A stretch of 20,453 nt of DNA, taken from positions 1 through 20,453 of IMG/VR virus record IMGVR_UViG_3300047470_000320. One strand, 5' to 3'. Under the pieces are notes generated by a model that searched no databases, was not told where the DNA came from, and worked only from the letters and a program-made list of their open reading frames with translations. The stretch comes from a virus. The stretch's first letter is position 1; every line of letters starts with the position of its first letter. Below are positions 9,495 to 19,949 of the stretch, one piece after another. Made by a program: the position numbers and the translations under genes.

Positions 9495-10084
9495 TCGGCC
9501 GGGTCCTTCTTCAGCCGGGAGGCCGGGTGCTCGGGGCAGTGCGGAAGGCCGTCCGCGTCCATCGTCCATCCCTCGGGGAGGATCGGCTTCAGCAGCGTGG
9601 TCGTCTCGCAGCGGGAGCAGCCGATACGCGGGCCATTCTCCAGTGCGGAGCGCGGCCGCAGAATGGGGGCCGGGCGCCGGGAGCGGTTGACCTCGGCATG
9701 CATGGCGAGCAGTTCGCTCGTCCAGGTGGCCGTGATGTCCCGCAGGTAGTCCATGAGGAGCTGGATGGTGTTCCGGCGAACGCGTGCCGGAACCCACGTG
9801 AACCAGCGGCCCATCCCGTCATACAGGGCCTCCAGCATCCGGTCGGCGTACCAGCGCATCTGCCGTTCGCGCGCGGTCTTGAGCTGCTGCATGTCCTCTT
9901 CGTGCAGGACCGGTATGGAGATCCGGCGCGCGGCGAGGGCGGCGGTGACGGCGACGATGTCGTCCTCGGTCAGTCCGTTGAAGGACTTCCTGACGACCTG
10001 GTCCTTGCCGGTGGAGTAGACGAGGGTGACCGTCGTGCCCCGCTCTTCGCGCGTACGGGCACTGGTGATGATGGTGTCGCTCAT
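9491..10084 (-). CDS. Hypothetical 197-aa protein with C-terminal Cys cluster
   Basis: ATG 10084 overlaps the stop of the 182-aa gene (ATGA), so it is coupled. Residues 15-40 look beta-rich. Residues 40-135 are helical (LTEDDIVAVTAALAARRI, then RQMRWYADRMLEALYDGMGRWF). The C-terminus has CSRC (156-159) and, after PEGWTMDADGLPH, C183 with H182/H186, a plausible zinc-binding tail. The longer minus-strand frame up to 10501 is a shadow of the neighbouring gene. I recognise no family. Confidence 0.75.
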   Translation of the reverse strand: MSDTIITSARTREERGTTVTLVYSTGKDQVVRKSFNGLTEDDIVAVTAALAARRISIPVLHEEDMQQLKTARERQMRWYADRMLEALYDGMGRWFTWVPARVRRNTIQLLMDYLRDITATWTSELLAMHAEVNRSRRPAPILRPRSALENGPRIGCSRCETTTLLKPILPEGWTMDADGLPHCPEHPASRLKKDPAE

Positions 10085-10629
10085 GCTGCCTTGACCCCCA
10101 TGGCGGTGGTGGTGTGGAGAGTGGTGAGGTTGTTCCGGGCGGCCTGCTGACGCTGGACGGTGTTGACGACGGTCTCCCACGCCATCCCGCAGAACCGGCC
10201 CAGCATCCGCTCGATGTTGTGGACGGCCTCGGGATCGACGCGGACCTTGCGCGAGGTGGCCTCCATCAGCATCTTGGCCATCTGCTCCGTACGGTCTCCG
10301 CTGGTACCCAGGTTGAGGATGTCCAGCGGGAAGTCCTTGTTCTCGTACAGGAACAGCTCCGCGTGGCGGGAGTTCTTGGGGCGGATGCCCTTCTCGGTGC
10401 CGATCTTGCGCTGGGTGCGGCGGTAGTCGAGGTAGTTGCCGACCAGCGACACGAACGGCTGGGGGACGCCCAGGAGTTGCGCCGTCTGCGGGTGTATCCA
10501 CTGCCAGCGCGGGCGTGACCGCGTGGTGATGTCGTCGATCGCGGTGACGGCGACCAGGCGGTGAGCCTTCTTCTCAGGGAGGTCCAGGTTGTCGCGGACC
10601 GCGTACAGGTGCGGATGTGCTGCGGGCAT
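10081..10629 (-). CDS. Hypothetical 182-aa protein
   Basis: ATG 10629 has a modest purine-rich SD (AGCAGGG) upstream. It is a basic, soluble protein with an aromatic/Arg-rich middle (FVSLVGNYLDYRRTQRKIG, about 60-78) and a helical C-terminal half (QMAKMLMEATSRKVRV, then IERMLGRFCGMAWETVV). It shares a transcript with the HTH-like 90-aa gene upstream and the 197-aa gene downstream. A nucleic-acid-binding role would fit the charge but is not established. Confidence 0.74.
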   Translation of the reverse strand: MPAAHPHLYAVRDNLDLPEKKAHRLVAVTAIDDITTRSRPRWQWIHPQTAQLLGVPQPFVSLVGNYLDYRRTQRKIGTEKGIRPKNSRHAELFLYENKDFPLDILNLGTSGDRTEQMAKMLMEATSRKVRVDPEAVHNIERMLGRFCGMAWETVVNTVQRQQAARNNLTTLHTTTAMGVKAA

Positions 10630-11678: not shown

Positions 11679-12186
11679 AGTTCGTGGTGACTGAGGCCTC
11701 GGCCTCCTTGTCCAGCCTGACCTCAGCGAGGTGCTGCAGCCGGTCTGTGGACGTGGGCAGGATGATCTCCCAGTCGGCGCCGGGCACCGTCGAGCGGATG
11801 CCTTGCCCCGGCCAGGGCTCGTGCCACTGGGTTCCCTCGGGCAACAGCGTGCCGAGGAGGGCGATGTCGTGGTGGATGCGCGCGCCGTGGCGGTCGGCGG
11901 CATCACCCGGCTTCAGGGAGTGCAGTGGCCCGTTGTCCCCGCCCGGCTCCCAGCCGGGTCCGTCGACCGACCACAGAGGCTTGTCGCCGTCGCCGAGGAT
12001 CTGCATCGGCTCGGCGCGCCCGGTGACGTCGTCGATGGTGATGAGCATGCGGCGGGCGCCGGGGTAGTGGAGCCAGAGGTGCTCGGCCATGCGCATGGCC
12101 AGGTCCTTGACGAGCCGGTCGGTGCCGATCCTGACACGGCCGTCGAGGGTCTTGGCGTACTGATCGCTCAGGCGGGTCCTGGTCAC
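11677..12186 (-). CDS. Hypothetical 169-aa protein
   Basis: GTG 12186 overlaps the stop of the 209-aa gene (GTGA). The N-terminal half is helical with RIGTDRLVKDLAMRMAEHLW. The middle is strand-rich (ARRMLITIDDVTG, about 45-57). Trp-rich turns follow (PLWSVDGPGWEPG, QWHEPWPGQG). The C-terminus is acidic and helical. There is no clear motif. The longer frame running upstream to 12768 is antisense-like shadow of the 209-aa gene. Confidence 0.73.
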   Translation of the reverse strand: MTRTRLSDQYAKTLDGRVRIGTDRLVKDLAMRMAEHLWLHYPGARRMLITIDDVTGRAEPMQILGDGDKPLWSVDGPGWEPGGDNGPLHSLKPGDAADRHGARIHHDIALLGTLLPEGTQWHEPWPGQGIRSTVPGADWEIILPTSTDRLQHLAEVRLDKEAEASVTTN

Positions 12187-12812
12187 CACCGGCTCCCGGG
12201 GATCTCGTCCAGGACCTTGCGCATGGAGTCGAGAGGGAGCATCACGTAGGGCTCGGGGTGAAAGCCGTCGCCCTCGTGGACGACGAACGGGCCACGGTCG
12301 GAGGCCCCGTGACCGGTGAGCAGGTAGCTCAGGGCGCCTGCCACGTCCAGGGGCGTGGCCTCCTTCTCCTCGTCGTCGGTCAGGGCCTCGGCCGTAGGTC
12401 GCAGTTCGCCCTGCAGGCTGGCGATGTACGACTTGGCAGCCTCCTGGGCGGCATTCCGGGTGCCGTCGGTTGCCTTCACGGCCTCGGTCAGGCCCTTCAT
12501 CTCGGGGCTTTGCCAGTTGGCCCAGGGGTCGATGTCCGTGCGGAACACCTTGTCCGGGTCTCCGTTGTCGAAGGTGTCGGTCGGGTCGCCGAGCGGGGAG
12601 ATGATCGCGCGGCCGAATCCGATCCCGGCGCCAACGACGTGGTCGGTCTGGCGCTTGGCGGTCGCCGCGATGCGCTCGGCCTCGGCGGCGAGCAGCTTGT
12701 CGGCGTAGGTGCGCAGGCGGTGGCCGAGGGGGCTGTTCCACAACTCCTCGTCGGTCATGTCGTCGCATGCGGCGGCGGCCGAGGCCTGGATCTCTTCACG
12801 GTTGATGGTCAA
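12183..12812 (-). CDS. Hypothetical 209-aa protein, TTG start
   Basis: The best start is TTG 12812, with SD AAGGAG 6 nt upstream; the next in-frame ATG (12758) has no SD. The protein is acidic and helical, with a clear helix at 30-60 (LRTYADKLLAAEAERIAATA). DNA-binding or enzyme motifs are not visible. It is the first gene behind promoter copy A, whose -10 box ends 31 nt upstream, giving a short leader of about 24 nt. It is coupled to the 169-aa gene. Rare TTG use at a promoter-proximal gene may limit its translation. Confidence 0.72.
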   Translation of the reverse strand: MTINREEIQASAAAACDDMTDEELWNSPLGHRLRTYADKLLAAEAERIAATAKRQTDHVVGAGIGFGRAIISPLGDPTDTFDNGDPDKVFRTDIDPWANWQSPEMKGLTEAVKATDGTRNAAQEAAKSYIASLQGELRPTAEALTDDEEKEATPLDVAGALSYLLTGHGASDRGPFVVHEGDGFHPEPYVMLPLDSMRKVLDEIPGSRW

Positions 12813-12842: not shown

Positions 12843-12871
12843 ACCCTAACGCATCCATAGATGCGTGTCTA
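12843..12871 (-). promoter_or_regulatory. Promoter copy A with embedded palindromic operator
   Basis: On the minus strand TAGACA (12871-12866) and TAGGGT (12848-12843) are separated by exactly 17 nt. The spacer carries the ACGCATC-N4-GATGCGT palindrome. It drives the 12812-11677 unit. The -35 box overlaps the stop of the upstream 195-aa gene. TAGGGT followed by GGGGT is shared with the other copies. Confidence 0.8.
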
Positions 12872-13456
12872 GGCGGCTGGGGTGATGCGTCCCGCCTCGC
12901 GCTCGTCGTGGGTCAGCGAGGTGTTGGAGCGTGGGCAGGGCTCCCCGGCCGGGGTGAGGTGGTTGCGCAATCGGCTTGAGGCGCCAGGCGAGACGGCCGT
13001 GCCGCACGCGACGCCGTCGCCGCCGGGGCAGCGGTACTGGATGGCGGGGCGGTCCCAGGGCTCCACGATGTCCTGCTGGCGCACCACACTGAGAAGCAGC
13101 GGCTCCTCGATCTCCTCCCGCAGGGCGGCCAGGGAGCCGATGGACTTCTCGGGGAAGCCGATCTCCTCGGCGCGCGAGCAAAGGGCGGTGAGCCCGGCGG
13201 CGATGTCGTCCTCGGTGAGGTCGAAGTAGGCGCCGGGGTTGGCGTGGACGACGAGCAGCCCCCGGCGAGTGCCGGTGTTCGGGTTGATCCTGCCGCCCCA
13301 GGTGGCGTCCTCGGGCGCCGGTGCGAAAGAGCGGTCGGCGCCCGCAACGGTCAGGTCCCACAGGCGCGTGTCCAGGAGCAGGCCGGGCCTGGCCTGCTGG
13401 TAGACGGCGGTCTTGACGCGATACAGGCGCGGCGGCCTGAGCTCGGTCCTGCGCAT
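12869..13456 (-). CDS. Hypothetical 195-aa protein with Cys-rich C-terminus
   Basis: ATG 13456 follows AGGAGG by 7 nt. The N-terminal half has a strand-rich stretch (RLYRVKTAVYQQARPGLLLD) and later GLLVVHANPGAYFDLTEDDI (66-85). A helical segment follows. The C-terminal 50 residues contain CPGGDGVACG and GEPCP, perhaps a loose zinc site with the nearby His. It lies alone between the altered promoter copy B and promoter copy A, so it is a single-gene unit. I recognise no family. Confidence 0.74.
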   Translation of the reverse strand: MRRTELRPPRLYRVKTAVYQQARPGLLLDTRLWDLTVAGADRSFAPAPEDATWGGRINPNTGTRRGLLVVHANPGAYFDLTEDDIAAGLTALCSRAEEIGFPEKSIGSLAALREEIEEPLLLSVVRQQDIVEPWDRPAIQYRCPGGDGVACGTAVSPGASSRLRNHLTPAGEPCPRSNTSLTHDEREAGRITPAA

Positions 13457-13489
13457 GGTGGAGCCTCCTGGGGGCGAGTGTGAACAACG

Positions 13490-13531
13490 AACCCCACCCT
13501 AACGCATCTATGGGTGCCCGAGGGTGGGGTT
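13490..13531 (-). terminator. Altered promoter copy B forming an 11-bp hairpin
   Basis: AACCCCACCCT (13490-13500) pairs perfectly with AGGGTGGGGTT (13521-13531), with a 20-nt loop. The loop and 3' arm keep the element's ATGCGT half-operator and the TAGGGT box (13501-13496), but the TAGACA -35 and the other half-site are lost. It separates the 123-aa and 195-aa genes and may act as terminator, weak promoter, or both. Confidence 0.65.
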
Positions 13532-13543
13532 GGCTGGGGGTTT

Positions 13544-13915
13544 TCAGGCGGCGGGCAGGACCTGGCGGAAGGCGAGCACGGCCATGATCCCGCCGCCGGT
13601 CACGCGGGTGCGGTGCGAGATCTCCTCGACGCTCAGCCCGTTCAGCAGGTACAGGTCGGTGATCTCCTGGATCTTCACCCAGGGCACGCCCGCGACGGCG
13701 AACTCCTGGTGCTCCTTCTTCAGGCGGGTGTGCAGCCGCCAGCCGTACTCGGTCAGGTGCAGGGTTCCATGCACGGACTCCGCGTACCCCTTGGCGCGCA
13801 GCTCGTCGCGGAGATGGCAGCCGGATGCGTTGATCCGGCCGGTGCCCGGGTCGGCGTGGAGCAGGGCCTGGCGCTCGGCGGAGTTCAGCTTGCTGGTCAT
13901 GGTTTTGGCGGCCAT
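13544..13915 (-). CDS. Putative winged-helix / helix-turn-helix DNA-binding protein (123 aa)
   Basis: ATG 13915 follows AGGAG by 5 nt. Residues 8-60 (LNSAERQALLHADPGTGRI, then LRDELRAKGY and LHLTEYGWRLHTRL) look like a winged helix, with LTEYG in the usual wing-to-helix position. Residues 80-115 contain a second HTH-like stretch (IQEITDLYLLNGLSVEEISH, then TRVTGGGIMAVL), in which LSVEEIS fits the first helix of an HTH. It is a candidate for the regulator of the repeated promoter-operators, but nothing in the sequence ties it to them directly. Domain calls are by eye. Confidence 0.68.
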   Translation of the reverse strand: MAAKTMTSKLNSAERQALLHADPGTGRINASGCHLRDELRAKGYAESVHGTLHLTEYGWRLHTRLKKEHQEFAVAGVPWVKIQEITDLYLLNGLSVEEISHRTRVTGGGIMAVLAFRQVLPAA

Positions 13916-13969
13916 GGGGACTCCTGGCGGTGAGTCGGAACGTATGTATGCCTGGCGGGCAGTTCGAGG

Positions 13970-14248
13970 CTAGCGCGAGGAGGCCTCGGCGAGGCCCTTC
14001 TCCGCGATCTGGATCGCCTCACGGACGTCGGCGGCCATCTGCGGCTCCTCTCCGTTCAGCGGCCAGGAGCGGACCGTGGCGGACACCAGACGGCCGTCCT
14101 CGCTGGTCACGGCGCGGGAGACGTGCCCCCGCGTGCTGCCCTGGGTGAACACCATCTCGACGGTGCAACCGTCGCTGCGCCGGGCGGGCAGGCGGATCGA
14201 TCCTCCGAGGCGGACGAGCGGTTCGACGGTGGCGGTCATCTGCGGCAC
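13970..14248 (-). CDS. Hypothetical 92-aa protein
   Basis: GTG 14248 follows AGGAGG by 5 nt; the in-frame ATG at 14239 is too far from the SD. The protein is beta-rich for most of its length (RLGGSIRLPA, TVEMVFTQG, GHVSRAVTS, GRLVSATVRSW) with a helical C-terminus (ADVREAIQIAEKGLAEA). It is the first gene after two tandem terminators and carries the shared CTTGACCCGCCAC leader. The next gene begins 55 nt further on. I recognise no family. Confidence 0.72.
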   Translation of the reverse strand: MPQMTATVEPLVRLGGSIRLPARRSDGCTVEMVFTQGSTRGHVSRAVTSEDGRLVSATVRSWPLNGEEPQMAADVREAIQIAEKGLAEASSR

Positions 14249-14284
14249 GGGGCCCTCCTGTGGCGGGTCAAGAGGTAAACGAGG

Positions 14285-14324
14285 GACGGCCGCGCCTGAT
14301 GGCGGTCAGGTTGCGGCGGCCGTC
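14285..14324 (-). terminator. Nested GC hairpin
   Basis: GACGGCCGC (14285-14293) pairs with GCGGCCGTC (14316-14324). Inside, CCTGA (14295-14299) pairs with TCAGG (14306-14310). It is the second of two hairpins in the 129-bp gap between the 102-aa and 92-aa genes, and no gene lies in that gap. Confidence 0.5.
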
Positions 14325-14331
14325 ACTGATT

Positions 14332-14377
14332 TTGCCAAAATCCGCTTCAACGGATCAACGGAAATGCGGTTTTTTGC
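14332..14377. terminator. Bidirectional rho-independent-type terminator
   Basis: CCGC/GCGG (14342-14345 with 14366-14369) and TTC/GAA (14346-14348 with 14361-14363) form the stem. An A-run (14337-14340) and T-run (14370-14375) flank it, so each strand ends the stem in U. It begins right after the stop of the 102-aa gene and is the only classical U-tract terminator I see in this GC-rich window. Confidence 0.75.
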
Positions 14378-14686
14378 TTACTCGTTACTTTCCTCGTCGA
14401 GGATCTGCAGGTAGTCCACGGCGTCCCGGTCTCCTGCAGCGGCCGCCTTCTCCCACCACGGGCGGGACTCGGAGACGTCGTACAGGCTTTCCGCGACCTC
14501 CGCGATCCGACGCAGCTGGGCCCCGTCTGGCTCATCCAGCCCCAACAGCGTCGCCAGCTCCCTCCTCCAGGAGGACACCTGCATCTGCGCCCGCGCCAAC
14601 GGTGGGATCGGCCCGGATTCCCCCTGGACGTGCGGCGCGCCCAGGCTGCTCTCGTTGAGCAGCTTCTCGAACTCCGCGTCATCCAC
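14378..14686 (-). CDS. Hypothetical 102-aa acidic protein
   Basis: GTG 14686 has GGAGG 9 nt upstream and overlaps the end of the 100-aa gene by 8 nt. It is an acidic helical protein. LLGLDEPDGAQLRRIAEVAE (47-66) and SLYDVSESRPWWEKAAAAGD (67-86) resemble helix pairs; the 'WWEKAAAAGD-DAVDYLQIL' ending is reminiscent of a single Sel1/TPR-like repeat. That likeness is weak. It is last in the promoter C unit and is followed at once by the bidirectional terminator. Confidence 0.73.
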   Translation of the reverse strand: MDDAEFEKLLNESSLGAPHVQGESGPIPPLARAQMQVSSWRRELATLLGLDEPDGAQLRRIAEVAESLYDVSESRPWWEKAAAAGDRDAVDYLQILDEESNE

Positions 14687-14981
14687 GACGGCTTACCTCC
14701 GGCTGGCGGTCCTCCGGACCCCAGTCGGCCGGGGTGATACCGATCTCGGCGAGCGCTGGACCCTGCCGCACCTGCTCGGTCTCGGAGGTGGCCAGCGGCC
14801 CATACCAGGCCAGCCGCTGGCCTGTCTCCGGGTTGCGGAAGACGGCCAGCGAGGCCGGGAACCGCACCGGCGGCGACCACCGCAGGAAGTACTCGCCGCT
14901 GTCCGGCGGCGTCTTCGTGTCGGCGGGCAGCCACCCGCGCTCGGCGGGGGCCCAGTCCTCGGGGATGGGGACCAGGAACAT
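14679..14981 (-). CDS. Hypothetical 100-aa protein
   Basis: ATG 14981 has AGGAGG 4 nt upstream and shares its A with the preceding stop (TGATG). Trp/Pro-rich and compact: VPIPEDWAPAERGWLPADTK, then GEYFLRWSPPVRFPASLAVF (29-48). Alternating hydrophobic strands suggest a small beta fold. The longer minus frame to 15713 is a shadow. No family is recognised. It belongs to the 15598-14378 unit. Confidence 0.73.
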   Translation of the reverse strand: MFLVPIPEDWAPAERGWLPADTKTPPDSGEYFLRWSPPVRFPASLAVFRNPETGQRLAWYGPLATSETEQVRQGPALAEIGITPADWGPEDRQPEVSRRG

Positions 14982-15598
14982 CAGCCCTCCTGCTGCGGCA
15001 TGAGCAGCGTGGTGGGCTCGAAGTTGGACCAGGTGGCGCCGTCCTTGGCCTTGTGGGCGCGCAGCTCGTTGGCGACAGCGCGGCCGCGCTCGGTCAGCCG
15101 GAAGCGGGCCCAGGGCATCAGACGCCACTCGGTGAGGCCGGTCATGAAGCCCGGCCGGGGGTCGTCCTCGCCGTCGAGGGGGCGGCCGTTGGGCTTCAGG
15201 AAGTGCTCGCCGTCCTCGCTGGCCTGCGGCATCTCGGTGGTGACGAACCCGGCGTCGACCATGTCCATCAGGGCGTCGGCCTCGCAGTGCCCGTACAGGG
15301 TGACCGGCTCGCCGTTGACGCGCTTGAGGCGCAGGCCGTACTTGTCGGCCGCGTCCTCGTCGTTGAGGAGGGAGTGGGGGTTGCGGGCGGCCCACAGCAT
15401 CGGCCAGTTCCGCTGGGAGAGGGTGAGCCGGTCCCAGGTGATGCGGCCGTGGTAGTCCACCTCGACGGACTCGACGTAGGCGAGCAGGCTCCAGTGGTCC
15501 TTGCTCCAGCGGTCGGGGGTGATCTGCTCGCGGCCCTCGCGGGCCTGCCACTCGGGCGCGGAGGCGGCGAGTTCGGCGAGGGTGTCCATGTTCTTCAT
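14981..15598 (-). CDS. Conserved-looking actinophage hypothetical protein (205 aa)
   Basis: ATG 15598 has AAGGAG 4 nt upstream, and a second AGGAG belongs to the shared leader. Residues 28-75 (DRWSKDHWSLLAYVESVEVD, then GRITWDRLTLSQRN) recall a 'W-KDHWS-LAY-E' block that I associate with hypothetical proteins in several actinophages; this is recollection, not a search. The C-terminal part is RLMPWARFRLTERGRAVANE, a possible winged-helix ending. It is first in the unit from promoter copy C. The function is unknown. Confidence 0.76.
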   Translation of the reverse strand: MKNMDTLAELAASAPEWQAREGREQITPDRWSKDHWSLLAYVESVEVDYHGRITWDRLTLSQRNWPMLWAARNPHSLLNDEDAADKYGLRLKRVNGEPVTLYGHCEADALMDMVDAGFVTTEMPQASEDGEHFLKPNGRPLDGEDDPRPGFMTGLTEWRLMPWARFRLTERGRAVANELRAHKAKDGATWSNFEPTTLLMPQQEG

Positions 15599-15634
15599 GC
15601 TGCTCCTTCGGTCGTGCTCCTAGGCGGTGACCCC

Positions 15635-15663
15635 ACCCTAACGTATCCATAGATGCGTGTCTA
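15635..15663 (-). promoter_or_regulatory. Promoter copy C with embedded palindromic operator
   Basis: On the minus strand TAGACA (15663-15658), 17-nt spacer, TAGGGT (15640-15635). The palindrome has one change from copy A in one half (ACGTATC on the plus strand). It drives 15598-14378. The leader after the -10 box (GGGGTCACCGCCTAGGAG) is nearly the same as in copy A. Confidence 0.8.
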
Positions 15664-15682
15664 CGAGTCCGGGAAACGCGAA

Positions 15683-15708
15683 GGCCCGCCCCGGCAAGGG
15701 GGCGGGCC
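15683..15708 (-). terminator. GC-rich terminator, 10-bp perfect stem
   Basis: GGCCCGCCCC (15683-15692) and GGGGCGGGCC (15699-15708) with a GGCAAG loop. It lies 9 nt after the stop of the 111-aa gene and 20 nt before promoter copy C, and is followed on the minus strand by a mildly T-rich stretch. It insulates the two units. Confidence 0.75.
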
Positions 15709-15716
15709 AGCACGTG

Positions 15717-16052
15717 CTAGTCCTCGTACGGCCAGACGTGGCCGTCGATGTCTTCGTGGTCTCCGCCGTCGTGCGGCGGCCGGATGCAGAGCGTCTCCTG
15801 GGCGTCCATGATGATGTCCATGGCGTCGCAGGTCGGCCCCTTGGGCTCCCGCGCCTCCCGTTCGGCCTCCAGCTGCTCGGCGGCCGTCCGGCGGGCGCGC
15901 ACCGTGGCGGCCGCCTTCAGGGACCGCTCGCGGCGCTTACGGCGCGCCTCGGGGGAGTTGAAGCGGCGCTCTTTCTCCTCCTTGACGGCCGCCACCACAT
16001 CCGGGTGGCTGGCGGCCAGCCGGAGCAGCGCCTTCACGAGGGGGTCAGGCAC
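15717..16052 (-). CDS. Hypothetical basic-helical 111-aa protein
   Basis: GTG 16052 has AGGAG 7 nt upstream and overlaps the previous gene by 8 nt. Residues 25-75 are a long, highly charged Arg/Glu/Ala helix (EEKERRFNSPEARRKRRERS, then VRARRTAAEQLEAEREA). The tail has two Cys and a His/Asp cluster (CIRPPHDGGDHEDIDGHVW), a possible metal site. The charge would suit nucleic-acid binding; no family is recognised. It is last in its unit, before a strong terminator. Confidence 0.72.
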   Translation of the reverse strand: MPDPLVKALLRLAASHPDVVAAVKEEKERRFNSPEARRKRRERSLKAAATVRARRTAAEQLEAEREAREPKGPTCDAMDIIMDAQETLCIRPPHDGGDHEDIDGHVWPYED

Positions 16053-16281
16053 TGCGCTGCTCCTCGCCGTACCCCGAGGGCCAGCGGTCATTCTGATGGG
16101 CCCAGCTCGCCAGGATCTCCGGGTGCTCGGCGAAGTACTCGGCCCAGGCGTCGTTGAAGCGCTCGGTGCCCCGGTCGCGGACGTGGCTGCACACGGTGTT
16201 GTGACCGGGGCGACGCATGCAGGTGTGAGGGGGCTCGTCGCGGCCGAGGTCCTCACCGCAGTAGACGTACCCGCTGCTCAC
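16045..16281 (-). CDS. Small Cys/His protein (78 aa)
   Basis: GTG 16281 overlaps the upstream stop in GTGA. Residues 6-31 contain YCGEDLGRDEPPHTCMRRPG and then HNTVCSH, three Cys and three His that could bind zinc; 'C...H.C.RRPGH' patterns recur in small actinobacterial and phage proteins. The C-terminal half is helical (ERFNDAWAEYFAEHPEILAS). The function is unknown. Confidence 0.7.
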   Translation of the reverse strand: MSSGYVYCGEDLGRDEPPHTCMRRPGHNTVCSHVRDRGTERFNDAWAEYFAEHPEILASWAHQNDRWPSGYGEEQRSA

Positions 16282-16697
16282 TGGTCGGCTCCGGTGCAGC
16301 GGCACTGGCAGCGCTTGATGACGTCGACCGTGACGCCGAGCATCGCACCACACGTGGCCTTGTCCTCGATGTACGGGCCGCTGTGCCCGCAGGCGGGGCA
16401 GACGTCGCGCTCGCCGGTCTTGCCGTGGGTGTTAACCCACTTCCGGGCGGCGTCGCTGTCGGCGAACTCGGTCTCGATCTCCACCTGGTCCAAGCGGTCA
16501 TACACGGTGCCGCCGTTGACGTAGTAGCGGTGCGACCGGTACATCGCGGTACCGCGCTCCGCATCCATCTGCCGGACGGCTTCGATGACGTCCCAGGTGT
16601 GCTCGACCGGGTACTCCTCTATGTGCCCGTCGATGATGCCCGCGATCTCCTCGGCGAGGGCCCGGGGCAGGCGCACGGTGACCATGTCGTCAGCCAC
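16278..16697 (-). CDS. Hypothetical 139-aa protein with C-terminal zinc-ribbon-like tail
   Basis: GTG 16697 has AGGAGG 8 nt upstream. The N-terminus MADDMVTVRLPRALAEEIAG looks like a ribbon-helix-helix-type strand plus helix (VTVRLPRALAEEIAGII, 6-22), often DNA-binding or antitoxin-like; this is a by-eye suggestion. The middle is YYVNGGTVYDRLDQVEIETE. The tail holds CPACGHSG (from about residue 100), a further Cys, and CQCRC near the end, enough Cys for a zinc site. Coupled to the 78-aa gene. Confidence 0.73.
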   Translation of the reverse strand: MADDMVTVRLPRALAEEIAGIIDGHIEEYPVEHTWDVIEAVRQMDAERGTAMYRSHRYYVNGGTVYDRLDQVEIETEFADSDAARKWVNTHGKTGERDVCPACGHSGPYIEDKATCGAMLGVTVDVIKRCQCRCTGADQ

Positions 16698-16700
16698 AGG

Positions 16701-17063
16701 TCAGCCCTCCTCGCCCTTCATGACGGCCAGCAGGCCACGCAGTTTGACCAGCGGCACGGTGTCCTGCAGCTGGTGCTTGATCTCGACCCCGGCCTCGCGC
16801 AGGTCGGCCAGCAGCTGCTCGCGCTCCTTCATGTCCGCGTGCTGCTCGGGCGTGACCAGCCACCGTGCCCAGCCGTGGTTCTCCTTCGAGACGCCGGTGG
16901 CGCGGTTGAACTGGTCTCTGGTCTCCTCCGTCTCACCCTCGCGGCAGACGTACACCCAGGCGCGGCCGACGCGGGAGACGACGACGTTCCGGGGCTCCTT
17001 GTTGTTGTCGGCCGAGACGAGGACGAGCGGGTCGCCCTTCTGCAGGTTGTCGGGCAGGCTCAT
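16701..17063 (-). CDS. Hypothetical 120-aa protein, start-site hairpin upstream
   Basis: ATG 17063 follows TAGGAG by 4 nt in the shared CCGCCTAGGAG leader. The first half is strand-rich and could be a small beta-barrel (DPLVLVSADN, RNVVVSRVGRAWVYVC). The second half is a charged helix (HADMKEREQLLADLREAGVE) followed by PLVKLRGLLAVMKG. It is first in the 17063-15717 unit, 20 nt after an 11-bp hairpin. No family is recognised. Confidence 0.74.
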   Translation of the reverse strand: MSLPDNLQKGDPLVLVSADNNKEPRNVVVSRVGRAWVYVCREGETEETRDQFNRATGVSKENHGWARWLVTPEQHADMKEREQLLADLREAGVEIKHQLQDTVPLVKLRGLLAVMKGEEG

Positions 17064-17082
17064 GGTTCTCCTAGGCGGGTGG

Positions 17083-17112
17083 CGGCCGCGCCCATGGTGT
17101 CGGGCGCGGCCG
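17083..17112 (-). terminator. GC-rich hairpin, 11-bp perfect stem
   Basis: CGGCCGCGCCC (17083-17093) and GGGCGCGGCCG (17102-17112) around an 8-nt loop. It lies between the surface-protein cassette and the 17063 unit, so it probably ends the cassette transcript. No U-tract follows. Confidence 0.6.
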
Positions 17113-17130
17113 TCGGGTGAAGGGGGTGGG

Positions 17131-17628
17131 TCAGTAGGACCAGCGCCAGCCGCCAGAGCGGTAGCGGCAGGTGATGGACGTACCGGCGGCGTTCGTGGTG
17201 GTCGCCCCGTGGTCGCTGTTCCTGCAGTACTGCCCGGCGGAGTAGCAGTTGCCGGAGTTCGACGTGATCGAGCAGGTGCCCGTGCTGGTGCCGCTGTCAC
17301 TGCTGCTGCCGTACGAGCTGGAGCCGGTGTTGCTGCTGGCGGCATGGGCGGTCTTGGTGACGGTGACGGTCGGCGCGGGCTTCGGCTTGGCCGTCTTGGT
17401 GACGGTGACCTTCGGCTGCGGCGTGGAGGTGACGGTCTGGGTCGCCGTGGCAGTCACGTGGACGGCGGGCTTGGCGTCGACCGACTCCGTGTTGTTGCCG
17501 GAGCTGCCGATGCCCGAGCCGATCACGAGGAGCAGGAAGCCTCCGGCCCACACGCGCTTGCGCTTGTACAGCTTGCGGGAGTCGGGCGGGCGCGGGGCGG
17601 GCGGGGCGGTGTACGGGTTGGTGTTCAT
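17131..17628 (-). CDS. Membrane-anchored protein with Cys-rich outer domain (165 aa)
   Basis: ATG 17628 follows a G-rich SD (AGGGGGG). The N-terminus is Pro-rich and basic, then a single membrane helix at about 27-42 (VWAGGFLLLVIGSGIG) gives an N-in, C-out topology. A Thr/Val/Lys/Pro linker (about 55-95) repeats VTVTKTA. A Ser/Gly spacer leads to a domain with Cys at 119, 128, 135 and 154 and the ending TCRYRSGGWRW, a small disulphide-type domain I associate with actinobacterial exported proteins. It shares anchor and leader with the PASTA protein next to it. A role at the host envelope, such as superinfection exclusion, is inference. Confidence 0.8.
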   Translation of the reverse strand: MNTNPYTAPPAPRPPDSRKLYKRKRVWAGGFLLLVIGSGIGSSGNNTESVDAKPAVHVTATATQTVTSTPQPKVTVTKTAKPKPAPTVTVTKTAHAASSNTGSSSYGSSSDSGTSTGTCSITSNSGNCYSAGQYCRNSDHGATTTNAAGTSITCRYRSGGWRWSY

Positions 17629-17648
17629 GATCCCCCCTGGGATGCGTG
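17626..17648 (-). promoter_or_regulatory. Leader of the Cys-domain gene, twin of 18194-18216
   Basis: Minus-strand leader CACGCATCCCAGGGGGGATC then ATG. It differs from the leader of the PASTA gene by one substitution and one insertion. ATCCC and GGGAT can pair across the G-rich SD, which may mask it. Confidence 0.6.
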
Positions 17649-17674
17649 ATGGTGGATGGTGAGGCTAGCGGCGG

Positions 17675-18196
17675 TCAGCAGGACTCGGTGAGCTTGACCG
17701 CGTACATGGTCACGGTGATCTCCAGACCGTGACTGCCGGGCGCGGGCTCCTGGGAGCACACCTTCCAGTCGTGGTCGAGGACCTGGAAGCGGCCCTGGCC
17801 GCTGGCGTCCTTGTCGCGAAGGTTGTAGAACCCGGCGGCCTGGGCGGTGTCCTGGGCGTCCTGCAGGTCCATGCCGGTGAAGTCCGGCAGGTCGCCGGTC
17901 GCGACGGCGGCGGCCGACTCGGAGGCCTCGTCGATCTGCTTCTGCAGGTCGTCGCGGCCCTTCTTGTTGTCCTTCTGCAGCTGCTTGAGGGCGTCGTCGG
18001 CCGAGGTCGGCGACGGGGTCGCGGTGACCGTCTTGGTCGGCGACGGGGTGGCGGTCGTCTTCTTGGTGTCGTCGTTGCCACCCGCGATGGCGCCGATGAC
18101 GAACAGCCCGACGACGGCACCGGCCCAGGTGCGCTTCATCTTGTACCAGGGGCGCGAGGGCTTGGCGGGCTGCTGCGGAACGTTCGGGTCGTACAT
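17675..18196 (-). CDS. Membrane-anchored PASTA-domain protein (173 aa)
   Basis: ATG 18196 follows the G-rich SD TAGGGGGG. A Pro-rich, basic N-terminus leads to one membrane helix at about 24-40 (TWAGAVVGLFVIGAIAGG). A repeated linker TATPSPT-KTV (48-64) and a charged coiled stretch (66-93) follow. Residues 102-173 look like one PASTA domain: LPDFTGMDLQDAQDTAQAAG, then DWKVCSQEPAPG and a final strand. PASTA domains bind peptidoglycan or beta-lactams in Ser/Thr kinases and PBPs (family knowledge). C147 and C173 may form a disulphide. The protein probably displays its domain outside the host membrane. Confidence 0.84.
   Translation of the reverse strand: MYDPNVPQQPAKPSRPWYKMKRTWAGAVVGLFVIGAIAGGNDDTKKTTATPSPTKTVTATPSPTSADDALKQLQKDNKKGRDDLQKQIDEASESAAAVATGDLPDFTGMDLQDAQDTAQAAGFYNLRDKDASGQGRFQVLDHDWKVCSQEPAPGSHGLEITVTMYAVKLTESC
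18005..18064 (-). repeat. Two 30-bp direct repeats in the PASTA gene linker
   Basis: Two copies, at 18005-18034 and 18035-18064, begin with GGTCGGCGACGGGGT on the plus strand and encode the TATPSPT linker repeat. Confidence 0.7.
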
Positions 18197-18216
18197 GATC
18201 CCCCCTAGGGATACGT
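18194..18216 (-). promoter_or_regulatory. Leader of the PASTA gene, twin of 17626-17648
   Basis: On the minus strand CACGTATCCC is followed by TAGGGGGGATC and ATG. ATCCC and GGGAT flank the SD. The match to the downstream paralogue extends across the leader and into the membrane-anchor region. Confidence 0.6.
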
Positions 18217-18239
18217 GGGTTGATGGTGGGTCAGGTGGT

Positions 18240-18467
18240 CTACGGGGCCAGCCACGGGGTGGCGGACCGGCTGGCGTCCTCGCGAGCCCGGCGCAGCGCG
18301 GCCGGGTCCAAGCTGGTCGGCGAGACGGTGACGATGACGGTGCGAGTGGGCTCCGGCATGGGCTTGGCGCCAGTGTCCTGAAACTCGGCGGCGCAGATGA
18401 TCGTGGCGAAGACAGCGATGCCGGTCAGGACGGCAGTGGCGGCCTGGCGACGGGTGTTGGCGTCCAC
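18240..18467 (-). CDS. Single-pass membrane protein (75 aa)
   Basis: GTG 18467 follows AAGGAG by 5 nt. The only membrane helix is at about 8-28 (QAATAVLTGIAVFATIICAA). A Pro/Thr/Val stretch (EPTRTVIVTVSPTS, 39-52) resembles the linkers of the two larger surface proteins. The tail is charged. It could be a partner of the PASTA and Cys-domain proteins. Function unknown. Confidence 0.72.
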   Translation of the reverse strand: MDANTRRQAATAVLTGIAVFATIICAAEFQDTGAKPMPEPTRTVIVTVSPTSLDPAALRRAREDASRSATPWLAP

Positions 18468-18539
18468 TCGGACTCCTTGGGTCAGCCGCTGGCGGGACGG
18501 CGGTGTTCGGTCAGCAGAACGCGCGAGGCGCTCTTCACG

Positions 18540-18872
18540 TCACGCCTCCTGTTCGGCGGCGTGACGGGCATGCTCGGCGAGGGCTCCGGCGGCGATGTGC
18601 GCGGTGCGCCAGATGCGGCTGGTGTTCCAGGCGCGGGCGCAGTCCTCGGCGTAGTTGGCCAGCGGCTGCAGGAGGTCCACGGGCCAGTCGACGCGTACGC
18701 AGTTCCCGGCCACCGGGCGGCCCCCGAGCGTGTCGAGCCGGGCGTTCAGCTCCTCGGGGGCATCAGGCTCGTCCGCGACGGCGCTGGCGGCCAGGAACGC
18801 GCGGGGGATGAGGAGTTCGGTGAAGCGGTCGCGGTTGGCTGCGACCCACTCTCTGCGGCCGTCGTCGCTCAC
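18540..18872 (-). CDS. Hypothetical 110-aa protein
   Basis: GTG 18872 overlaps the 66-aa gene's stop in GTGA. It is a soluble, helical protein: WVAANRDRFTELLIPRAFLA (9-28), then LLQPLANYAEDCARAWNTSR (68-87) and AHIAAGALAEHARHAAEQE. No motif or membrane segment is seen. It lies inside the membrane cassette and may be its only cytoplasmic member. The region 18468-18539 after it holds no gene. Confidence 0.72.
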   Translation of the reverse strand: MSDDGRREWVAANRDRFTELLIPRAFLAASAVADEPDAPEELNARLDTLGGRPVAGNCVRVDWPVDLLQPLANYAEDCARAWNTSRIWRTAHIAAGALAEHARHAAEQEA

Positions 18873-19069
18873 CGCTCGGCCCTCGGGGCCGTCCAGGCGC
18901 GCCCGGCGATGGCGAGGACTGCGGTGCAGACGGCGTACAGCACGGTCAGGTTGTCGCACAGGGCGCGGTTCTGCGGGGTGTTGGAGAGGTGGAAGTGCAG
19001 CCACAGCCAGACTGCGGGCGTGAGGGCGGACGGCGCTATGGGCGCGAACGCCAGGATGGAACGGCGCAT
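18869..19069 (-). CDS. Two-helix membrane protein (66 aa)
   Basis: ATG 19069 has AGGAG about 10 nt upstream within the shared CTCGACCCGCCACG leader. Hydrophobic stretches at about 5-25 (ILAFAPIAPSALTPAVWLWL) and 40-58 (NLTVLYAVCTAVLAIAGRAW) suggest two membrane passes with a short loop. It is the first gene of the unit from promoter copy D. A holin-like or membrane-exclusion role is possible; no direct evidence. Confidence 0.72.
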   Translation of the reverse strand: MRRSILAFAPIAPSALTPAVWLWLHFHLSNTPQNRALCDNLTVLYAVCTAVLAIAGRAWTAPRAER

Positions 19070-19117
19070 GATGAGTTGTTCTCCTCGTGGCGGGTCGAGG
19101 GGGTGGTGGTGTCACCG

Positions 19118-19144
19118 GGTGCTCCGCTGGCGGGCAAGAGCACC
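19118..19144 (-). other. Stem-loop in the promoter D leader
   Basis: GGTGCTC (19118-19124) and GAGCACC (19138-19144) form a perfect 7-bp stem with a 13-nt loop, about 15 nt after the -10 box. Copies A and C have no counterpart. It may be an attenuator or RNA-stability element. Confidence 0.45.
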
Positions 19145-19158
19145 TTGCAACGAACCCC

Positions 19159-19187
19159 ACCCTAACGCACGCATAGATGCGTGTCTA
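19159..19187 (-). promoter_or_regulatory. Promoter copy D with embedded palindromic operator
   Basis: On the minus strand TAGACA (19187-19182), 17-nt spacer, TAGGGT (19164-19159). The spacer keeps the left half-site and has one changed base in the other. It sits just after the stop of the 157-aa gene and drives the membrane cassette (19069 leftward). The bases after TAGGGT (GGGGTTCGTTG) match copy B. Confidence 0.8.
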
Positions 19188-19665: not shown

Positions 19666-19949
19666 TGCTGCTCCTTGCGGGTCAGTTCGATGATGAGGGC
19701 GGCCAAGCGCAGGGGGCCGTGGGTGTGGTGGCACTGGGTGCACTCGCGCAGGTGGTCGGCCTCGTGCTGGCGCGCCAGGGTCAGGCAGGAGACGCGGCCG
19801 GGCAGCGGGCGGCAGACGTAGAACCGCACACCCGGCCGGTACAGGCCCGGCGGGATCGGGTGCTTCATGTCCTCGGTGACCTCCTCCAGCGGCGCTTCGC
19901 AGCCGTCGCAGGTGATCACCTCGCCGGACGGGGTTTTTGCGAGGGGCAC
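19662..19949 (-). CDS. Small multi-cysteine (zinc-finger-like) protein (95 aa)
   Basis: GTG 19949 has GGAGGA about 7 nt upstream, overlapping the previous stop. The protein has CDGC at 14-17, single Cys at about 46 and 55, and CTQCHHTH at about 70-77. Pairs of CxxC at both ends suggest a zinc-binding fold. The C-terminus is helical. Function unknown. It is coupled to the 157-aa gene by GTGA. Confidence 0.73.

What the first reader, a model, noticed from the sequence alone, without database searches (positions are those of the whole stretch)
12843..19187. Repeated promoter with a palindromic operator built into its 17-nt spacer
Seen: three copies (12843-12871, 15635-15663, 19159-19187) on the minus strand have TAGACA, exactly 17 nt, then TAGGGT. 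The spacer is almost filled by ACGCATC-N4-GATGCGT or a one-base variant. Each lies between the end of one unit and the first gene of the next. Known: actinobacterial vegetative promoters often use TTGACA/TAGRRT-like boxes. Inferred: one dimeric phage or host regulator binds between the boxes and switches at least three small-gene units together. I know of no described family with this exact arrangement.
Basis: partly seen in the sequence, partly recalled or inferred. Interest (0 to 1): 0.75.

Follow-up and report, generated by a model that had tools for sequence, protein, structure and literature searches.

The report
Phage promoter with built-in operator site
A family of large Streptomyces phages that live as plasmids repeats one switch, a mirror-image binding site set directly against the promoter's -10 box, in front of many small-gene units, and each phage lineage uses its own version, so one phage-made regulator probably controls all the units at once.

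Summary
In detail: three TAGACA-N17-TAGGGT units with a spacer palindrome, none expected by chance. A fourth, weaker copy (13496-13519) was missed. The window is a fragment of a Streptomyces phage whose relatives are circular 152-157 kb phage-plasmids; one is pRLB1-9.1 of Streptomyces sp. RLB1-9. They carry up to 19 such sites each. In pRLB1-9.1 all 19 are intergenic, mostly 30-65 nt upstream of a start codon.

The constant part is an 18-bp dyad, nnGCAnn-N4-nnTGCnn, abutting TANNNT. The -35 box varies: TAGACA at 17-18 nt, TTGACA at 19, or no clear box. Dyad sequence differs by lineage, yet several orthologous genes keep a site. Arms do not covary within a lineage. Sites are absent from two host chromosomes. 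This fits operators of a dimeric phage-encoded regulator, most likely a lysogeny repressor.

My lead candidate is an EspR-like XRE repressor next to an ImmA-like metalloprotease gene. Fetching new phages by this protein alone predicted their sites correctly. Binding and transcription are untested. In kind this resembles phiC31 CIRs and L5 stoperators; the strict -10 register and lineage re-coding appear new.

The parts
12843..12871 (-). Site 1: -35 TAGACA (12866-12871), dyad ACGCATCTATGGATGCGT (12849-12866), -10 TAGGGT (12843-12848); 30 nt before the TTG start of gene 12183-12812
13496..13519 (-).
   Evidence: orthologous sites in G001, G002, G003, G004, G005 and G008
15635..15663 (-). Site 2: TAGACA, dyad ACGCATCTATGGATACGT (15641-15658), TAGGGT; 36 nt before gene 14981-15598
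   Evidence: orthologous sites in G001, G003 and G005
19159..19187 (-). Site 3: TAGACA, dyad ACGCATCTATGCGTGCGT (19165-19182), TAGGGT; 89 nt before gene 18869-19069
   Evidence: orthologous sites in G001, G002, G003 and G005
12183..12812 (-). first gene downstream of site 1 (209 aa, unknown)
12869..13456 (-). first gene downstream of site 4 (195 aa, unknown); orthologues found in G001-G005 and G008, not in G007
14981..15598 (-). first gene downstream of site 2 (205 aa, unknown)
18869..19069 (-). first gene downstream of site 3 (66 aa, membrane-type by inspection)
13544..13915 (-).
10081..10629 (-). 182-aa protein family with a weak HTH_37 match (in the pRLB1-9.1 homologue), present in all complete lineages; second-rank candidate regulator
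15684..15706 (-). G+C-rich hairpin (about -27 kcal/mol) between the previous unit and site 2, probable terminator

Best explanation
The element is a repeated promoter-operator of a Streptomyces phage-plasmid. RNA polymerase carrying the host vegetative sigma factor recognises the TAGGGT (TARRRT) -10 box, usually with a TWGACA-like -35. An 18-bp dyad, nnGCAnn-N4-nnTGCnn, fills the -13 to -30 region directly against the -10. It is the operator of a dimeric phage-encoded helix-turn-helix regulator that most likely keeps the non-structural small-gene units silent in the plasmid-prophage state by steric occlusion, and releases them together on induction. The most likely regulator is the EspR-like XRE protein of the XRE / HExxH metalloprotease / DUF6545 cassette found in all complete relatives and in the sister contig G001; the protease would be the ImmA-type inducer. 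Shown: the repeated architecture, its promoter-like placement, lineage-specific dyads with a constant GCA/TGC core, absence from the host chromosomes, and co-occurrence with the XRE gene. Inferred: promoter activity, repression rather than activation, the identity of the binder, and the protease step.
For: Exact repeat with 0 expected. Sister phage G001 keeps the window's sites at the orthologous positions of sites 2, 3 and 4. PWM scans found up to 19 (G002), 9 (G007) and 11 (G008) promoter-oriented sites above the best score in the reversed genome. 19/19 sites in pRLB1-9.1 are intergenic (12% of that region is intergenic), with a median -10-to-start gap of about 40 nt. Orthologous downstream genes carry a site in several lineages although the dyad sequence differs. 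GCA/TGC is constant at dyad positions 3-5/14-16 while positions 6-7 are lineage-specific; arms do not covary within a lineage, p>0.1. The dyad sits at offset 0 from TANNNT, and this is not seen in cousins Stormageddon, Finch or Breeniome. Lineage-specific sites occur only on the phage contig in two 8-Mb assemblies. Relatives have phage structural genes plus ParA and are circular plasmids or whole contigs. Prediction test: two new phages fetched only by the XRE protein contain 3 and 9 GCA-N8-TGC-N2-TANNNT sites, all on one strand, reversed control 0. The XRE family matches EspR by profile (E=4e-7) and by fold (top PDB hits, prob 1.00, E=4e-3; next Stl, CapH, P22 c2, SinR). EspR's consensus TTTGC[TC][GA] is (R)GCAAA, which shares the GCA core (PMC3315491).
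Against: No transcript, binding or lysogeny data. The XRE gene's own divergent control region holds no GCA-N8-TGC site in any lineage, so autoregulation through this operator is not seen. The XRE gene lies outside the window, which is a fragment, and is inferred for it from sister G001. Other phage HTH proteins occur in all complete lineages. Close phages share both XRE and operator, as they share most genes, so the correlation is not specific to the XRE. G008 promoters lack a clear -35, which would also suit an activator. Using 12-nt block shuffles, the strict palindrome-next-to-TANNNT counts in G001 and G002 are not above the largest shuffle; the PWM and pattern controls are the stronger tests.
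Confidence: 0.62

Rival explanations
1. Same promoter-operator and dimeric phage regulator, but the binder is another phage HTH protein and not the EspR-like XRE, for example the window 10081-10629 family (weak HTH_37), the tandem-XRE 212-aa protein of the replication module, or the 173-aa protein whose gene carries the site in three lineages.
For: These proteins occur in all complete lineages. The 173-aa gene has its own site in G002, G007 and G008. The XRE control region lacks the operator.
Against: The XRE protein predicted sites in two new phages, though any conserved gene might do so. Only the XRE has a solved homologue (EspR) with a GCA-core half-site. The 173-aa protein has no domain hit.
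Confidence: 0.35
2. The dyad is an activator site: either a MerR-type regulator that untwists a long spacer, or a phage activator that replaces the -35 contact, turning the units on as lytic middle genes.
For: Several copies are TTGACA-N19-TAGAGT with a dyad filling the spacer, which is the geometry of MerR promoters (MerR geometry from general knowledge). G008 copies mostly lack a -35. The dyad-to-10 register is strictly fixed.
Against: MerR action needs a 19-20 nt spacer, but copies in the same genome have 17 (7 of 19 in G002 at >=5/6 to TTGACA) as well as 19 (6 of 19). A dimer at -13 to -30 would normally block polymerase. No MerR-family domain appeared among the proteins scanned, but the scan was not exhaustive.
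Confidence: 0.2
3. The inverted repeat acts as an RNA or DNA hairpin: a terminator between units or a translation-start element like SAS/ESAS.
For: The site 4 copy folds to -30.6 kcal/mol, z -4.1. A symmetric copy exists in G001 at 10449-10495. Sites lie close to start codons.
Against: Arms do not covary within lineages. Site 3 folds no better than shuffles (z -0.9). The dyad is upstream of the likely transcription start. The TANNNT box and its register are constant. Only a few copies are symmetric, terminator-like ones.
Confidence: 0.07
4. A host Streptomyces regulator binds the dyad.
For: Host sigma would have to read these promoters anyway.
Against: Dyad sequence differs between phage lineages of one host genus. 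Lineage-specific patterns have 0 matches in the rest of two 8-Mb assemblies, and the window-type pattern with up to 3 mismatches also has 0 there.
Confidence: 0.03

Closest known systems
phiC31 conserved inverted repeats (CIRs) and repressor c
   Same: Streptomyces temperate phage; one dyad repeated about 16 times, mostly between genes (refound here as CCTACTCACGTGAGTAGG); read as operators of the phage repressor (own knowledge; no open paper found); a few CIRs sit 1 nt upstream of a TANNNT box.
   Different: CIR sequence is unrelated; most CIRs are not in register with a -10; the phiC31 repressor has no homologue here; phiC31 integrates, whereas these relatives are circular plasmids.
Cluster A (L5) mycobacteriophage stoperators and Rep
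   Same: Many dispersed sites for one repressor, one orientation, motif differs between subclusters along with the repressor; some members are extrachromosomal with parABS (PMC6550527).
   Different: Stoperators are 13-bp asymmetric and mostly not at promoters; here they are 18-bp dyads, each locked to a -10 box.
Cluster K SAS/ESAS repeats
   Same: Inverted repeats repeated close to gene starts in the non-structural half, with consensus differing by subcluster; suggested as DNA-binding sites (PMC3203893).
   Different: ESAS has 17-bp arms with a variable spacer and adjoins a 13-bp SAS at the RBS; here arms are 7 nt with N4, no SAS, and a -10 box follows.
MerR-type promoters
   Same: Dyad inside the spacer of a TTGACA/TAnnnT promoter, 19-nt spacer in one class of copies.
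   Different: Spacer is 17, 18 or 19 nt in other copies; no MerR gene seen among scanned proteins.
EspR of Mycobacterium tuberculosis; XRE/ImmA-type repressor-protease pairs (ImmR-ImmA, CapH-CapP, Stl)
   Same: Lead regulator matches EspR by profile and fold, including YLSxLRxGxRTNP; an HELGH protein gene is adjacent; Stl, CapH and P22 c2 are further structural hits.
   Different: The phage protein has an insertion between the HTH helices and a different C-terminus; no Pfam family matches; the protease has only a sub-threshold M48 match.

Membership tests
Phage promoter-operator repeat (general kind) | repeated promoter with the same dyad, upstream of genes | tested here: met
Phage promoter-operator repeat (general kind) | transcription starts at the boxes and is regulated | not testable with these tools
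   no RNA data
phiC31 CIR system | homologue of repressor c | tested here: not met
   tblastn best E about 1
phiC31 CIR system | CIR sequence CCTACTCACGTGAGTAGG | tested here: not met
   dyads here are nnGCAnn-N4-nnTGCnn
L5 stoperators | 13-bp asymmetric site, mostly away from promoters | tested here: not met
   18-bp dyads abutting a -10, 19/19 intergenic
Cluster K SAS/ESAS | 13-bp SAS GGGATAGGAGCCC at the RBS, 17-bp arms with variable spacer | tested here: not met
   no SAS seen in the listed flanks; fixed N4 and short arms
MerR-type promoter | fixed 19-20 nt spacer | tested here: not met
   17, 18 and 19 nt found
MerR-type promoter | MerR-family activator encoded | tested here: inconclusive
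   none among the scanned proteins, scan not exhaustive
XRE / EspR-like DNA-binding protein (lead regulator) | XRE helix-turn-helix fold | tested here: met
   profile E=4e-7 to EspR; model pLDDT 86, top PDB hits EspR; no Pfam hit
XRE / EspR-like DNA-binding protein (lead regulator) | binds the dyad | not testable with these tools
   indirect only: shared GCA core and prediction test
ImmR-ImmA / CapH-CapP pair | adjacent HExxH metalloprotease | tested here: inconclusive
   HELGH motif, sub-threshold M48 match E=0.0015, no PDB match
Phage-plasmid | circular plasmid record with virion genes and partition genes | tested here: met
   pRLB1-9.1: circular, capsid, baseplate, ParA, ParB-like; for the window itself only by kinship

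The most novel reading that the evidence does not exclude
An undescribed immunity regulon in which an EspR-like XRE repressor, released by an ImmA-type protease, controls up to about 19 promoters whose -10 box is fused to its operator. Lineages have re-coded the inner half-site bases while keeping GCA, so whole regulons of 9-19 sites were rewritten together, giving separate immunity groups among Streptomyces phage-plasmids.
Probability: 0.35. Interest if true: 0.75.

Novelty: new variant of a known kind. Interest (0 to 1): 0.56.

Why it matters
It gives a concrete, testable map of a phage-wide regulon in a little-described group of large Streptomyces phage-plasmids: up to 19 promoters per genome whose operator can be read from sequence. 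Because each lineage re-coded the same dyad at most sites while orthologous genes kept a site, it is a natural experiment on how repressor specificity and many dispersed operators change together, an open question studied so far mainly in cluster A mycobacteriophages. The promoters may also serve as compact, orthogonal repressible parts for Streptomyces.

Tried and rejected
DNA search of known phages with the whole window: no match. Window-type motif in viral contigs: only the sister contig G001; other degenerate hits were unrelated AT-rich contigs. phiC31-like repressor: no homologue. 123-aa binder: no homologue in G008. 90-aa protein: no domain hit. XRE-DUF5753 regulator beside the site region: its own intergenic region keeps a similar GAGAATTCTC-like repeat across lineages, by eye, and no dyad, so it is an unlikely binder. 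414-aa HTH protein: beside a 1-kb non-coding stretch on the replication side, probably a replication protein, by inspection only. RNA hairpin reading: no covariation. More relatives in 393 Streptomyces genomes by capsid protein: none besides G007 itself. Architecture in distant cousins (partial genomes of Stormageddon, Finch, Breeniome): absent. Block-shuffle control was too noisy to use alone. Papers on phiC31 CIRs: none held.
Full report
OBSERVATION. The three copies exist exactly as described and are not expected by chance (0 in 100 shuffles). They belong to a longer repeat: copies 1 and 2 share 62 nt at 85%, and all copies continue as TAGGGTGGGGT. A fourth copy at 13496-13519 (-) has the dyad (one arm decayed) and TAGGGT but no -35. 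The window is the entire IMG/VR contig.

WHAT GENOME. No known phage matches at DNA level. The portal and capsid proteins are about 36% and 59-60% identical to those of large actinobacterial myophages such as Rhodococcus phages E3 and Finch, Gordonia phage Stormageddon and Mycobacterium cluster C phages (the capsid query was the pRLB1-9.1 protein). A motif scan gave a sister contig, G001 (86.7 kb, mostly collinear at about 77-87% DNA identity). Protein searches gave circular or whole-contig elements of 152-157 kb in Streptomyces: pRLB1-9.1 (NZ_CP041653.1 = G002), a contig of strain MH60 (G007) and one of strain A0642 (G008). pRLB1-9.1 is a circular plasmid record with capsid, baseplate, DNA polymerase, helicases, ParA and a ParB-like protein, so this is a phage-plasmid family. 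Whether the window phage also lives as a plasmid is inferred from kinship.

THE ELEMENT IN RELATIVES. G001 keeps sites at the orthologous places of sites 2, 3 and 4 and has four more. In G002/G003, G007 and G008 the same architecture recurs with different dyads: GGCAAC-N4-GTTGCC + TAGAGT; ATGCATATCGATATGCAT + TAnnnT; GCGCACTNNNNAGTGCGC + TAAGGT. Using position weight matrices with the reversed genome as null, 4 sites were found in the window, 7 in G001, 19 in G002, 9 in G007 and 11 in G008 in promoter orientation. In pRLB1-9.1 all 19 sites are intergenic although only 12% of that region is, and most -10 boxes end 30-65 nt before an annotated start. Orthologous downstream genes carry a site in several lineages.

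WHAT IS CONSTANT. In 50 sites the hexamer is TA[GA][GAT]GT-like, followed by G (48/50) and usually GG, with CC enriched 11-12 nt after the hexamer (the sites were chosen by weight matrix, so this is descriptive). The dyad ends immediately before the -10 in every lineage. GCA at positions 3-5 and TGC at 14-16 are nearly invariant; positions 6-7 define the lineage. A bare pattern GCA-N8-TGC-N2-TANNNT finds 3, 8, 18, 9 and 11 hits in window, G001, G002, G007 and G008, with 0 for the reversed pattern and 0-1 for other dyads. The -35 is not constant: TTGACA or TTGACC at 19 nt, TAGACA at 17 nt, both in one genome (G002); TAGACA at 18 nt in G007; mostly absent in G008.

OPERATOR, NOT HAIRPIN; PHAGE, NOT HOST. 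Within each lineage the two arms vary independently (all p>0.1), as expected for two half-sites of a protein dimer and not for a hairpin. The exceptions are a few symmetric copies such as site 4, which fold strongly and may double as terminators. The lineage patterns occur only on the phage contig in two 8-Mb Streptomyces assemblies, all on one strand, and the window-type pattern has no match there.

REPRESSOR OR ACTIVATOR. A dimer on -13 to -30 covers DNA that sigma-bearing polymerase must use, so occlusion is the simplest reading. A MerR-type mechanism needs a fixed 19-20 nt spacer, which is not met. An activator is not excluded, above all because G008 copies lack a -35.

WHICH PROTEIN. The 123-aa protein is missing from G008. 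A cassette of XRE-like protein, HELGH protein and DUF6545 protein, transcribed against its neighbours, is present in G001, G002, G007 and G008, and its first gene also in G401 and G402. The XRE protein matches EspR by profile and by predicted fold (pLDDT 86; EspR first, then Stl, CapH, SinR and P22 c2). EspR binds TTTGC[TC][GA], i.e. a GCAAA half-site (PMC3315491), and shares YLSxLRxGxRTNP with the phage proteins. As a test I searched viral contigs with this protein alone: two further phages appeared, and both contain the predicted pattern, 3 and 9 times, on one strand, with 0 in the control. One has the G007 dyad and an XRE 96% identical to G007's; the other has a new dyad, GCATCT-type, and an XRE 46-48% identical to those of G001, G002 and G007. 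This shows co-occurrence, not binding. Against it, no such site lies in the XRE control region.

COMPARISON. The kind is known: phiC31 has about 16 CIRs (refound here), L5-type phages have dispersed stoperators with subcluster-specific motifs, and cluster K phages have ESAS repeats of unknown function near gene starts. As far as I know none has the dyad locked to the -10 box in nearly every copy, and none of their defining sequences or proteins tested is present here. I therefore file it as a new variant of the multi-operator phage regulon.

LIMITS. No expression or binding data; few independent lineages (about five dyad types); several genomes are fragments; gene calls in G007 and G008 are my own crude calls; phiC31 biology beyond the sequence is from general knowledge.

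Noticed in passing
NZ_CP041653.1 (pRLB1-9.1), whole record: Listed as a plasmid in PLSDB but carries capsid, baseplate, tail and replication genes plus ParA/ParB-like genes: a 154-kb phage-plasmid related to cluster C-type myophages.
   Followed up: partly
G002 136105-138581 (-) and homologues in G001, G007, G008: Conserved cassette of XRE repressor-like, HELGH metalloprotease-like and DUF6545 (MAB_1171c-type) genes; its divergent control region has its own lineage-specific long inverted repeats next to a conserved TTGACA.
   Followed up: partly
NZ_CP041653.1 69862-71032: ATP-grasp-modified RiPP genes (tgmA and MvdC/MvdD-like ATP-grasp) carried by the phage-plasmid.
   Followed up: no
window 13491-13530 (-); G001 10449-10495: Symmetric copies with CCCACCCTA on the far side too: hairpin plus -10 on both strands, possibly a combined terminator, operator and promoter.
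   Followed up: partly
G002 sites: Strong -35 (TTGACA) goes with a 19-nt spacer and weaker -35 (TAGACA) with 17 nt, as if promoter strength were balanced.
   Followed up: no
G002 76033-77826 and homologues in G007, G008: WhiJ/AbaA-like group (XRE-DUF5753, DUF397-like, ATP-binding protein) with a GAGAATTCTC-like repeat that looks conserved across lineages.
   Followed up: partly
phiC31 AJ006589, 16 positions: CIR palindromes refound de novo; the copy at 19771 inside gene c is 1 nt from TAGAGT.
   Followed up: no
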